Assembly: GCF_001399755.1 (NCBI RefSeq)
Contig: NZ_LJCP01000006.1
Coordinates: 186,001-250,000, forward strand
DNA: 64,000 nt
Reading direction: 5' to 3'
From: Thiohalorhabdus denitrificans
GTDB lineage: Bacteria > Pseudomonadota > Gammaproteobacteria > Thiohalorhabdales > Thiohalorhabdaceae
Shown: positions 31,526 through 37,512 of the stretch, piece by piece
Position numbering within the stretch: position 1 is the first letter of the stretch
How the letters are laid out: each line of letters starts with the position of its first letter
Notes under the pieces: generated by a model
Database searches by the model: none
What the model was told of the DNA's origin: nothing
Seen by the model: only the letters and a program-made list of their open reading frames with translations
Translations under genes and position numbers: made by a program

Positions 31526-32293
31526 ATGAATATTAATAATCCAGCTAACTGTATTTTATTAGTACTGGCTATAGTGCTTACTGGCTGTGGCGGAGGTGGA
31601 GATGGAGGTGGTAGCTCCTCCAGTTCTTCCTTCATTCTCGAAGAGGGTATTGAAGTCTCAGATTCCACTCTCCGAACTTACCAAAACGGGGAGACCTGGG
31701 ACTACTTGTTAGAAGGAACCCACGAAGATGGGTCTACAAAGGAAAACCTATCAGGAAGCTACAAAATATCCTATTTTACCAAAACGAAAACCGCTCCAGA
31801 CACCCAGACCGTTGATACGGAAAGCATAAGCGGAAAACTAACCATCAGCGAGGGGTCCACTATAAATTCTAATATCCAAAATTATGTTTATCAGGATAGC
31901 AATGGAGACATGTATTATTATGGAGATCAAGAAGATGGATGGATTAAATCTGGTCCCGTCCTAAATACGCCTGGAACTATTTACACAGGGTACGCAAAGA
32001 GCCACAGCTTCACTTACGAGAACGGAGCCAGACACGAATCAACTGTAAACGTTGTCGGGACCGCCAAAGTGGAAACTCCTGCCGGTAGCTATGAGACCTA
32101 CAAGATTGAGGGTTCCTCCACTATTACAGACACTGATGGATCCTACAAAAAATCCAATTCTACTTCTTGGTTTTCCCCGAAGCTAGGCCAGACAGTGATA
32201 AGAGAAAGGAATGTTTCCTACTACGACGCCTACGATTCCTTCGAAGATTCCTTTACCTGGACTATCAAGCTAACTGGGGGCAGTGCTACCTAA
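31526..32293 (+). CDS. Hypothetical lipoprotein, AT-rich cargo gene
   Basis: 255 aa. Signal CILLVLAIVLTGCGGGGDGG has lipobox LTGC, followed by a Gly/Ser linker typical of surface lipoproteins. The mature part is Ser/Thr/Tyr-rich beta-type sequence (TYQNGETWDYLLEG, KVETPAGSYETYKIEG, WFSPKLGQTVIRE), the last resembling domains in proteins with repeated sheet folds. Clearly AT-richer than the chromosome. It lies between the IS481 remnant and attR, the usual place for cargo. Function unknown. Confidence 0.7.
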   Translation: MNINNPANCILLVLAIVLTGCGGGGDGGGSSSSSSFILEEGIEVSDSTLRTYQNGETWDYLLEGTHEDGSTKENLSGSYKISYFTKTKTAPDTQTVDTESISGKLTISEGSTINSNIQNYVYQDSNGDMYYYGDQEDGWIKSGPVLNTPGTIYTGYAKSHSFTYENGARHESTVNVVGTAKVETPAGSYETYKIEGSSTITDTDGSYKKSNSTSWFSPKLGQTVIRERNVSYYDAYDSFEDSFTWTIKLTGGSAT

Positions 32294-34929: not shown

Positions 34930-35013
34930 CCGGACGGGAACCGGGGCCCGCCCCGGTTGCCCTATACCCTGTCAGGTACGCGGCCGTACGCAACGTTGGG
35001 GAAGACCCTGCCC

Positions 35014-35310
35014 ATGGACGATTCGCTGTTTTTCCTGCCCGCCTCCGAGGAGCACGTGGCCCGGGAGAAGGCCAAGGCCCGCGAGCTGCGGCGCAGCCAG
35101 TGGTGGAAGCGCCGTCGCGCCAAGGGGGTGTGCCACTACTGCGGGGAGTCCTTCCCGCCCCGCGAGCTCACCATGGACCACGTGGTGCCCATCATCCGCG
35201 GCGGCGAGACCACCAAGGGCAACGTGGTGCCCGCCTGCCCCGACTGCAACGCCGAGAAGAAGTACCAGCTGCCCCTGGAGTGGCAGGGGGTGCTCGACGG
35301 CGACGACTAA
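35014..35310 (+). CDS. Small HNH endonuclease
   Basis: 98 aa. The HNH nuclease fold with two CxxC knuckles is clear: CHYCGESFPPRELTMDHVVP then RGGETTKGNVVPACPDCNAE. The DHVVPIIRGG stretch carries the first catalytic His, and the Asn/His spacing fits HNH_5-type enzymes. A basic N-terminal helix (RRSQWWKRRRAK) could bind nucleic acid. ATG 35014 is chosen because the longer frame has no conserved tail. Seen as a lone gene in many gammaproteobacterial genomes; role unclear. Confidence 0.9.
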   Translation: MDDSLFFLPASEEHVAREKAKARELRRSQWWKRRRAKGVCHYCGESFPPRELTMDHVVPIIRGGETTKGNVVPACPDCNAEKKYQLPLEWQGVLDGDD

Positions 35311-35336: not shown

Positions 35337-35538
35337 AAAACGCCAAACCGCCAAGGACGCCAAGGCACGCCAAGAAAACCAAAATTGGCTATCTGGACCG
35401 GTCAGGAAGGCAGTTGAAAACCAGAGCTCGGCTACTGTGGGAGCGGCCATCGGCCGCGACCGAGTCGTCCCTTGCGGCAGGTCGCGGCTGGTAGGCGCTC
35501 CCACAAACCGCTTTCCTGAGCCAACCGGATAGCCAATT
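35337..35538. repeat. CGCCAAGG arm plus MITE-like REPIN element
   Basis: AACCGCCAAGGACGCCAAG (35346-35364) repeats the 19095 arm. Next, AATTGGCTATC (35383-35393) and its exact complement (35528-35538) frame about 156 bp with further imperfect pairing (TCAGGA/TCCTGA). Inside lies a REP pair: GTGGGAGCGGCCATCGGCCG (35437 on) and its inverted partner ending CGCTCCCAC (35504). There is no gene. This looks like a small non-autonomous element carrying a REPIN. Confidence 0.75.
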
Positions 35539-35543
35539 AATAG

Positions 35544-35572
35544 AAAAGGCACCCCCTCGGGGGTGCCTTTTT
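35544..35572. terminator. Bidirectional terminator between HNH and cytochrome-porin genes
   Basis: Stem AAAAGGCACCCCC / GGGGGTGCCTTTT with loop TC. A-rich and T-rich flanks on both sides let it act for the convergent HNH and cytochrome-porin genes. Confidence 0.9.
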
Positions 35573-35595
35573 GCTTCCGGCCCGCTGCGCCTGCC

Positions 35596-36915
35596 TCAGA
35601 AGGCGGCGTCCAGGCCCATCAGCAGGTAGTGCTCGCGCTCCCGGTGGGCGAAGTCGTTGGTGTCCTGGAAATCGTAGTTGGCCTCCACCACGCCGCGCAC
35701 ATTGCTGGCGAAGTAGTAGGAGGTGGTGAAGGTCAGGGTGTTGAGGTTGAGGCCGTCGTAGCGGGTGTTGGCGAGGTCGTCGTTGACAGTTACCCCGAAG
35801 TCGGACAGTTGCACCTCGTCGAGATCGTCGGCGTCGCCGTAGTTGTACAGCAGGGAGAAGGCCCACTCGGGGCTCATGATCCAGTCCACCCCGGCGAAGC
35901 CGCCCCACCAGCTGTAGTCCTCGCCCTCCTCCAGGAAGTCGCCCCACTCGTTGTAGAGCCCCTGCAGGTACCAGTAGACGTCGCCGCCGACCTGGCCGGA
36001 GAGGTCGAGGCCGGCGATGCGCTTGTCGGCGGTGTGGCCGGGCAAACTGTCAGGTGCATCGATGTTCCCGGCCTCCTGCTGGAAGCCGTTGGGCTGCTGC
36101 CCGGCGAAGCCGAACACGCCGATCCCCACGCCGGCCACGTCGGTGGCGATGCGCCCGAATACCGACTTCTGGTCGTTGTTGTCGAAGCTGTGGTCGGGCC
36201 GGCTGTAGCCGCTGGCGGTCAGGGTGCGGCTCTCGTCGATGCCGTTGCTGTTGACCACGCCCAGGGCCAGGTCCACGGGGCCGAGACCGCGCTCCAGCAG
36301 CAGGCCGCGCTCGTAGGTGATGCCCGCCATGCGGTAGGGGATGTAGTCCTGGAAGGACAGGCGCACCTCGCGGGGGAACATGAGGTCGGAGACCTGGAAC
36401 TGGCCCAGCATGGCCTCCACCCCGGTGCCGAAGACGTCGTCGTGGCGGAGCCAGGCGTCCTCGATGAGGACGGTGCCGTTCTCGCCCTTCTCGGCGAGGA
36501 TGCCGTAGAAGTAGGTGTTGATGTGGTCGGTGAGGGGCGCGCCGCCGAGCAGCTTGATGAAGTAGGGGCTCTGCAGGTCCACGTTGGCGGCCTCCTCGCC
36601 CTCGGCGGCCCGGTCGGCGGAGCGGAGCTGGCCGAAGCCCTGGATGCGCACCGCCAGGGGGACGGAGTCCGGCAGATGCAGCCGGTCGTCGCCGTAGCTC
36701 TCCCGCTTGTCCTTCCAGTTGGGCAGCCGGTAGCCGTTGGCGGCGAAGTCCTCGCCGAAGCTGTTCAGCTTGGGCACGGCGGCGTGGCAGGTGTTGCAGC
36801 TCATCTCGGTCTGCCGGGCGAAGGCCGGGATGGCCGAGGCCTGCTGGGGCAGCAGGGCCAGCAGGCCGGCCAGGGCCACAAGCCCGGTCCCGATGCGGGC
36901 GGTAATGCGGGTCAT
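35596..36915 (-). CDS. Single-heme c-type cytochrome fused to an outer-membrane porin
   Basis: 439 aa from ATG 36915, with AGGAGGAG upstream. Signal peptide GTGLVALAGLLALLPQQASA is followed by IPAFARQTEMSCNTCHAAVP, a CxxCH heme c site right after cleavage, then NSFGEDFAANGYRLPNW. The remaining 370 residues are alternating aromatic/polar beta strands ending EHYLLMGLDAAF with terminal Phe, the sign of an outer-membrane barrel. This is the architecture of Cyc2-like cytochrome-porins, which pass electrons across the outer membrane. Whether the substrate is Fe(II), a sulfur compound or another donor cannot be told. No multiheme MtrA/MtrC partner nearby. Confidence 0.8.
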   Translation of the reverse strand: MTRITARIGTGLVALAGLLALLPQQASAIPAFARQTEMSCNTCHAAVPKLNSFGEDFAANGYRLPNWKDKRESYGDDRLHLPDSVPLAVRIQGFGQLRSADRAAEGEEAANVDLQSPYFIKLLGGAPLTDHINTYFYGILAEKGENGTVLIEDAWLRHDDVFGTGVEAMLGQFQVSDLMFPREVRLSFQDYIPYRMAGITYERGLLLERGLGPVDLALGVVNSNGIDESRTLTASGYSRPDHSFDNNDQKSVFGRIATDVAGVGIGVFGFAGQQPNGFQQEAGNIDAPDSLPGHTADKRIAGLDLSGQVGGDVYWYLQGLYNEWGDFLEEGEDYSWWGGFAGVDWIMSPEWAFSLLYNYGDADDLDEVQLSDFGVTVNDDLANTRYDGLNLNTLTFTTSYYFASNVRGVVEANYDFQDTNDFAHREREHYLLMGLDAAF

Positions 36916-37071
36916 CGGTGTCGCTCCTCCTGGGGTTGACGCTGGAAGGGGGCGGCGGACATCTGGGGAACGGAGTGGGGACAGTCTAGCAGGGCCCGCT
37001 GAAAGCAAACTTAATCCGGGTCAAAGGACGGACAGGAGGGCCGGGTATCCGGCCCATTCCGGCGGCTGCAG

Positions 37072-37512
37072 CTAGTCGGCGGCGAACAGGCGGGAGACCT
37101 CGAAGACATGCTCCTCGTCGGAGCCCTCGGGCTGGACGTGGACTTCGAGGCGCACCTTCTCGGGCGGGTTGATGCGGAAATCGGACAGGTAGTAGATGGC
37201 CTCCCCTTCGTCCACCTCCCGCATCTCCAGATCGCGGCGCTGAGAGGAGAGGTTGACGGCCACCGCCCAGACCTTGGCCCGGACCGGCTTCTCCTCGCCG
37301 CCGTTGCCCGTTTTGCGGACGGCCACGGTGACCAGGCCCCGGTGGTCGCTGCGGGTGATGCCGTATTCCCGGGCGACCTGCGGCGTGAGGTTGGAGGTGA
37401 GCATGGTGCCGTGGTGGATTACGTAATCGCCGAACAGCTTCTGGGCGCTGACGGAGGCCGGGGCGACGGCCAGGAGGAGGCAGAGGCCCAGGAGCAGGCT
37501 CACGTGGCGCAT
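37072..37512 (-). CDS. DUF4426 periplasmic protein
   Basis: 146 aa. N-terminal signal HVSLLLGLCLLLAVAPASVSA precedes a DUF4426 beta-sandwich-like domain: FGDYVIHHGTMLTSNLTPQV, RGLVTVAVRKTG and YYLSDFRINPPEKVRLEVHV. DUF4426 proteins are typically encoded next to metX-metW in gammaproteobacteria, as here, but no function has been shown. Exported to the periplasm by prediction. The preceding intergenic gap separates it from metW by 91 bp. Confidence 0.88.
   Translation of the reverse strand: MRHVSLLLGLCLLLAVAPASVSAQKLFGDYVIHHGTMLTSNLTPQVAREYGITRSDHRGLVTVAVRKTGNGGEEKPVRAKVWAVAVNLSSQRRDLEMREVDEGEAIYYLSDFRINPPEKVRLEVHVQPEGSDEEHVFEVSRLFAAD

What the first reader, a model, noticed from the sequence alone, without database searches (positions are those of the whole stretch)
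35596..36915. Cytochrome-porin fusion resembling Cyc2-type extracellular electron conduits
A single CxxCH right after the signal peptide fused to a full-length beta barrel ending in Phe is the Cyc2 architecture used to oxidise extracellular donors. It is isolated from other respiratory genes and convergent with a repeat-rich region.
Basis: partly seen in the sequence, partly recalled or inferred. Interest (0 to 1): 0.6.

Follow-up and report, generated by a model that had tools for sequence, protein, structure and literature searches.

The report
Cyc2-type outer-membrane cytochrome-porin
The gene encodes a one-haem cytochrome fused to a 16-strand outer-membrane pore, a member of the known Cyc2 family that several bacteria use to draw electrons from dissolved iron; here it sits in a sulphur-oxidising, CO2-fixing gammaproteobacterium, so the real question is what it oxidises there.

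Summary
Confirmed. 35596-36915 (minus) is a real 439-aa gene: signal peptide, one CxxCH, then a predicted 16-strand barrel ending in Phe. It carries the published Cyc2 signature exactly (AIPAFARQT, CNTCH, PKL). No Pfam or NCBIfam model covers it. AlphaFold predicts 16 strands that superpose on solved 16-stranded porins, including OprP/OprO, the templates reported for Cyc2. It is single-copy and 81% identical, in the same gene order, in the one well-assembled genome of its genus. It belongs to a fully supported clade (~50-56% identity) scattered over many gammaproteobacterial families. In an 82-sequence tree the clade groups with a second Cyc2 type found in some presumed Zetaproteobacteria (inferred Cluster 3), not with the iron-oxidiser Cluster 1 type. 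Cluster 3 function is considered least certain. All 13 clade genomes sampled in the class carry RuBisCO and 10 carry SoxB, so most are sulphur-oxidising autotrophs. The pore's L3 segment (GQFQVSDLMFPRE..R...QD) is as conserved as the haem domain, suggesting a selective gate. Best reading: an outer-membrane oxidase feeding electrons from dissolved Fe(II), or a similar small donor, to periplasmic cytochromes and cbb3/aa3 oxidase. The substrate is unproven. A new member of a known kind.

The parts
35596..36915 (-). cyc2-like gene, 439 aa (stop codon 35596-35598)
   Evidence: ORF and translation; 81% identical full-length homologue in G001; codon-position bias 54/50/132
36924..36931 (-). ribosome-binding site AGGAGGAG, 8 nt before the ATG
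   Evidence: read directly from the sequence
36832..36915 (-). signal peptide, residues 1-28, ending ASA
   Evidence: hydrophobic leader and AxA site by inspection; helix 2-20 in both models; SignalP not run
36736..36831 (-). monohaem cytochrome domain, residues 29-60 (IPAFARQTEMSCNTCHAAVPKLNSFG...)
   Evidence: Cyc2 motif AxPxFAR[QK][TY] plus CxxCH plus PxL (for the definition); invariant core across the clade
36784..36798 (-). haem-binding CxxCH (CNTCH, residues 40-44)
   Evidence: only CxxCH in the protein
35599..36657 (-). 16-stranded beta barrel, residues 87-439, C-terminal Phe
   Evidence: AlphaFold models, mean pLDDT 63 and 71, pTM 0.63 and 0.72; VIA-align Z about 24 to OprP, OprO, Omp32, OmpF
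36313..36396 (-). L3 segment, residues 174-201 (QVSDLMFPREVRLSFQDYIPYRMAGITY), predicted constriction loop
   Evidence: 14 of 28 residues invariant in 18 homologues, mean conservation 0.89 against 0.81 for the cytochrome; position from the 16-strand topology
35544..35571 (-). terminator-like hairpin just after the stop codon

Best explanation
It is a Cyc2-family fused cytochrome-porin of the outer membrane, in a gammaproteobacterial clade that groups with the inferred Cluster 3 type. Shown here: the architecture, the Cyc2 motif, and the clade with its conserved barrel segment L3. Inferred: after Sec export and c-type haem attachment, the barrel sits in the outer membrane with the cytochrome as a plug on its periplasmic side. 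A dissolved reduced donor, most likely Fe(II), enters the pore past the L3 constriction and is oxidised at the haem. The electron passes to a soluble periplasmic c-type cytochrome encoded elsewhere and on to cbb3 or aa3 oxidase, as a supplementary donor pathway in a sulphur-oxidising autotroph.
For: Cyc2-defining motif, single CxxCH, PxL and length are all met. A 16-strand barrel is predicted, and structural alignments to OprP/OprO and other 16-strand porins have Z about 24, the fold reported for Cyc2. Eleven cytochrome-domain residues (A, P, F, A, R, C, C, H, P, L, G) are invariant over 14 divergent homologues. In the tree the window clade has 100/100 support and joins the second presumed-Zetaproteobacterial Cyc2 type (97/88), apart from the main type (100/98 split); forcing it with the main type is rejected at p-AU 0.015. 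The genome has RuBisCO, SoxB, aa3 and cbb3 oxidases, and 20 matches to the cytochrome_CBB3 family. It has no MtrB/PioB homologue, so this is its only candidate of the two conduit types tested. All 13 clade genomes in the class sample have RuBisCO and 10 have SoxB. L3 is as conserved as the haem domain, consistent with a specific substrate. 'Ca. Siderophilus nitratireducens', related to sulphur oxidisers and dominant in an Fe(II)- and nitrate-removing enrichment, has a Cluster 3 cyc2 as its only annotated iron oxidase (PMC10993476).
Against: No partner gene travels with it: neighbours are unrelated and differ between genomes. Keffer et al. rate Cluster 3 function as most uncertain. The RuBisCO and SoxB association is not corrected for shared ancestry. 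The model is of middling confidence in the cytochrome domain, and no distal haem ligand is conserved near the CxxCH. The organism is not shown to grow on iron.
Confidence: 0.72

Rival explanations
1. A Cyc2-fold protein whose physiological donor is not Fe(II) but another small reduced species (reduced sulphur compound, organic or metal complex), or which takes electrons from mineral sulphides or other solids through a soluble shuttle.
For: 10 of 13 clade genomes in the class sample carry SoxB and all 13 RuBisCO. L3 sequence differs from the other Cyc2 types although it is fixed within the clade. Cyc2 of sulphur-oxidising lucinid symbionts has not been experimentally shown to oxidise iron (PMC12442345).
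Against: All three biochemically tested Cyc2 proteins, one per cluster, oxidise Fe(II) (PMC8406198). No direct evidence for another donor. Sulphur oxidation already has a periplasmic route (SoxB present).
Confidence: 0.2
2. An ordinary anion or solute porin that kept a vestigial or structural haem plug and has no role in energy metabolism.
For: Fold is that of general and phosphate porins; apparently monocistronic and unlinked to respiratory genes.
Against: The cytochrome motif is invariant over the clade and far beyond it. The haem domain is at least as conserved as the barrel. All 13 sampled clade genomes of the class carry RuBisCO.
Confidence: 0.06
3. An outgoing conduit: the protein disposes of electrons or reduces an extracellular acceptor (metal reduction or redox balancing).
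For: The direction of electron flow through a single haem cannot be read from sequence.
Against: Measured Cyc2 activity is oxidation of Fe(II), potential 208 mV for the Mariprofundus protein (PMC8406198, abstract). The genome has aerobic oxidases.
Confidence: 0.02

Closest known systems
Cyc2 family, Cluster 3 (Leptospirillum Cyt572, second Cyc2 of some Zetaproteobacteria, 'Ca. Siderophilus' cyc2)
   Same: Signal peptide, AxPxFAR[QK][TY]..CxxCH...PxL, fused 16-strand porin; joins the presumed Zetaproteobacterial second type in the tree, with a partly shared barrel stretch (V.DL...R..R.Q...Y.M).
   Different: About 22% identical to that type overall; own clade with an L3 sequence GQFQVSDLMFPRE largely fixed within it; from sulphur-oxidising autotrophs not known to grow on iron. 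Cluster identity is inferred.
Cyc2 Cluster 1 (Mariprofundus ferrooxydans PV-1 Cyc2)
   Same: Overall architecture and cytochrome motif.
   Different: The presumed Cluster 1 rows have an extra residue after the haem site (CHFQxFP) and a different barrel; grouping the window clade with them is rejected.
Cyc2 Cluster 2 (Acidithiobacillus ferrooxidans Cyc2, Sulfuriferula)
   Same: Overall architecture.
   Different: No reference sequence was available; no respiratory operon beside the gene here.
OprP/OprO phosphate porins and general 16-strand porins
   Same: Barrel fold, Z about 24 over about 300 residues.
   Different: No haem domain; 8-16% sequence identity; no Pfam porin model matches the protein.
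MtrAB / MtoAB / PioAB porin-cytochrome complexes
   Same: A porin combined with c-type haem for electron transfer across the outer membrane.
   Different: Those use a 26-strand barrel and a separate decahaem cytochrome; none in this genome by the MtrB/PioB model.

Membership tests
Cyc2 | Signal peptide followed by a single CxxCH | tested here: met
   Leader ending ASA, one CNTCH at residues 40-44; by inspection, SignalP not run
Cyc2 | AxPxFAR[QK][TY] motif upstream of CxxCH (reported unique to Cyc2) | tested here: met
   AIPAFARQT; definition
Cyc2 | PxL motif four residues after CxxCH | tested here: met
   CNTCH-AAV-PKL
Cyc2 | Length of at least 365 aa | tested here: met
   439 aa
Cyc2 | Fused 16-strand outer-membrane barrel like OprO/OprP | tested here: met
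   16 strands in the model; OprP Z 24.2, OprO Z 24.0, tied with other 16-strand porins; predicted structure, not solved
Cyc2 | Sequence or profile match to a characterised Cyc2 (FeGenie HMMs, blastp 1e-5) | not tested
   FeGenie models and named Cyc2 sequences are not on hand; homology to presumed Zetaproteobacterial Cyc2 shown by profile
Cyc2 Cluster 3 | Groups with Cluster 3 in the Cyc2 tree | tested here: inconclusive
Cyc2 | Fe(II) oxidase activity in the outer membrane | not testable with these tools
   needs expression and assay
MtrAB/PioAB conduit | Separate multihaem cytochrome and MtrB/PioB barrel | tested here: not met
   single haem in this protein; no MtrB/PioB match in the genome

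The most novel reading that the evidence does not exclude
The gammaproteobacterial clade is a functionally distinct Cyc2 branch: sulphur-oxidising autotrophs use it with a clade-specific pore gate (L3, GQFQVSDLMFPRE..R...QD) to take electrons from dissolved Fe(II) or metal-sulphide-derived species, so a large set of 'sulphur oxidisers' would be facultative iron or mineral oxidisers.
Probability: 0.3. Interest if true: 0.55.

Novelty: new member of a known kind. Interest (0 to 1): 0.34.

Why it matters
Cyc2 is the main candidate marker gene for neutrophilic iron oxidation, yet many homologues lie in organisms not known to oxidise iron, and Cluster 3 is the least understood part. This is a clean single-copy example in a near-complete genome (99.9% by the tool's estimate) with no MtrB/PioB conduit, so a knock-out would be easy to read. 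The invariant L3 residues (among them D177, M179, R182, E183, R185, D190, Y194) are concrete targets for testing how the pore chooses its donor.

Tried and rejected
Pfam, NCBIfam and PDB sequence searches gave no usable match for the protein or its 18-member alignment; the best were chance-level. Plasmid records hold no relative. A conserved partner gene was sought around eight homologues and none was found. The overlapping plus-strand ORF 35563-36939 (458 aa) is rejected: conservation and codon-position bias follow the minus frame. A paper linking the genus I suspect from memory (Thiohalorhabdus; not tested) with Cyc2 was sought and not found. The direct repeats inside the gene are short two-copy matches of a GC-rich coding sequence.

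Full report
Observation. The product has a hydrophobic leader ending ASA, then IPAFARQTEMSCNTCHAAVPKLNSFG, a short linker, and about 350 residues that end in ...LLMGLDAAF. It has one CxxCH. Against the 81%-identical homologue of the same genus, differences by codon position are 54, 50 and 132 over 439 codons, so this frame is under protein-level selection and the overlapping plus-strand ORF is not a gene.

What it is. Pfam, NCBIfam and PDB sequence searches give nothing, so the name has to come from other evidence. Keffer et al. 2021 (PMC8406198) define Cyc2 by length over 365 aa, CxxCH, a PxL motif four residues after the haem site, and an AxPxFAR[QK][TY] motif that they report as unique to Cyc2. 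All are met to the letter. They also describe a 16-strand barrel most like OprP/OprO. Two AlphaFold models built from homologues (18 and 33 rows; mean pLDDT 63 and 71, pTM 0.63 and 0.72) give a barrel from residue 87 to 438; the deeper one has exactly 16 strands. The fold therefore says '16-strand porin' and does not single out OprP.

Family. One full-length copy is present in the genome. The same genus has an 81% homologue in the same order: argA-like, HNH endonuclease, this gene, DUF4426, metW, metX. Homologues with 50-56% identity over full length occur in many gammaproteobacterial families, and one in another class of the phylum. Much more distant proteins share the haem motif with other barrels. 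In an 82-sequence tree the window clade (15 rows) has 100/100 support.

Which cluster. Genome names are hidden, so clusters were anchored indirectly. One family of the phylum sample outside the window's class (f207, with f227) accounts for most of the matching genomes; its members carry one common Cyc2 type and a subset a second type. McAllister et al. (PMC7029218) describe that pattern for Zetaproteobacteria: Cluster 1 in all OTUs, Cluster 3 in fewer. On this inference the main type is Cluster 1 and the second is Cluster 3. The window clade joins the second type (97/88) and is split from the main type (100/98); holding it with the main type and its relatives costs 25.6 log units, p-AU 0.015. 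MAFFT also lines up part of the barrel, V[SN]DL...R..R.Q...Y.M, between the window clade and the second type. Cluster 3 is therefore likely but not proven, and it is the cluster whose function Keffer et al. call most uncertain.

Context. No partner gene is conserved next to it around eight homologues. The genome has RuBisCO, SoxB, an aa3 oxidase (CtaD) and a cbb3 oxidase (CcoN), 20 matches to the cytochrome_CBB3 family, and no MtrB/PioB homologue. Over 369 genomes of the class, all 13 with the clade have RuBisCO (187 overall; one-sided Fisher 1.2e-4) and 10 of 13 have SoxB over the cut-off (147 overall; 0.007). These tests ignore shared ancestry. They fit an electron-donor role in autotrophs that mostly oxidise sulphur. 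A parallel exists: 'Ca. Siderophilus nitratireducens', close to sulphur oxidisers, carries a Cluster 3 cyc2, RuBisCO and nap, and dominates an Fe(II)- and nitrate-removing enrichment (PMC10993476).

A further detail. Conservation over 18 clade members was averaged by segment of the predicted topology. The third outer loop, L3 (residues 174-201, QVSDLMFPREVRLSFQDYIPYRMAGITY), scores 0.89 with 14 of 28 residues invariant; the cytochrome domain scores 0.81. The short loop L2 (AEKGxNG) is also highly conserved (0.92), while the other outer loops score 0.56 to 0.76. L3 is the loop that folds into the pore in general porins (established porin knowledge). A fixed L3 is what one expects of a pore that admits one kind of donor to the haem. 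That its acidic and Met residues bind metal is a hypothesis only.

Mechanism. Shown: gene, motif, predicted barrel, clade, conservation. Inferred from family knowledge: export, haem attachment, outer-membrane insertion, periplasmic cytochrome plug, oxidation of dissolved Fe(II) inside the pore, transfer to a soluble c-type cytochrome and on to cbb3 or aa3 oxidase. The donor is the least certain step. The main rival is a different donor in the same kind of protein; a porin with a vestigial haem and an outgoing conduit are unlikely.

Verdict. It is a new member of a known kind, of moderate interest because of its host and its conserved pore segment.

Noticed in passing
35383-35538: Palindromic element (33-nt outer arms 79% complementary, 26-nt inner arms 85%) with about 50 partial matches over the genome, including one 151-nt copy at 76% identity; looks like a REP/MITE-type repeat.
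   Followed up: partly
34957-35310 (+): Small HNH endonuclease ORF whose best NCBIfam matches are the HNH parts of Cas9d and IscB, far under cut-off; 93% identical over 101 residues in the same place in the sister genome.
   Followed up: partly
37072-37512 (-): DUF4426 protein next to metW and metX, an arrangement conserved in the sister genome.
   Followed up: partly
31526-32293 (+): Lipoprotein-like ORF (LTGCGGGG start) with sub-threshold DUF3108 similarity.
   Followed up: no
L020, L039, L040, L100: A further Cyc2-like clade of about 500-520 aa with a different L3 (VG.FDP..L..FPTHRQQ), in two cases in genomes that also carry the window clade.
   Followed up: no
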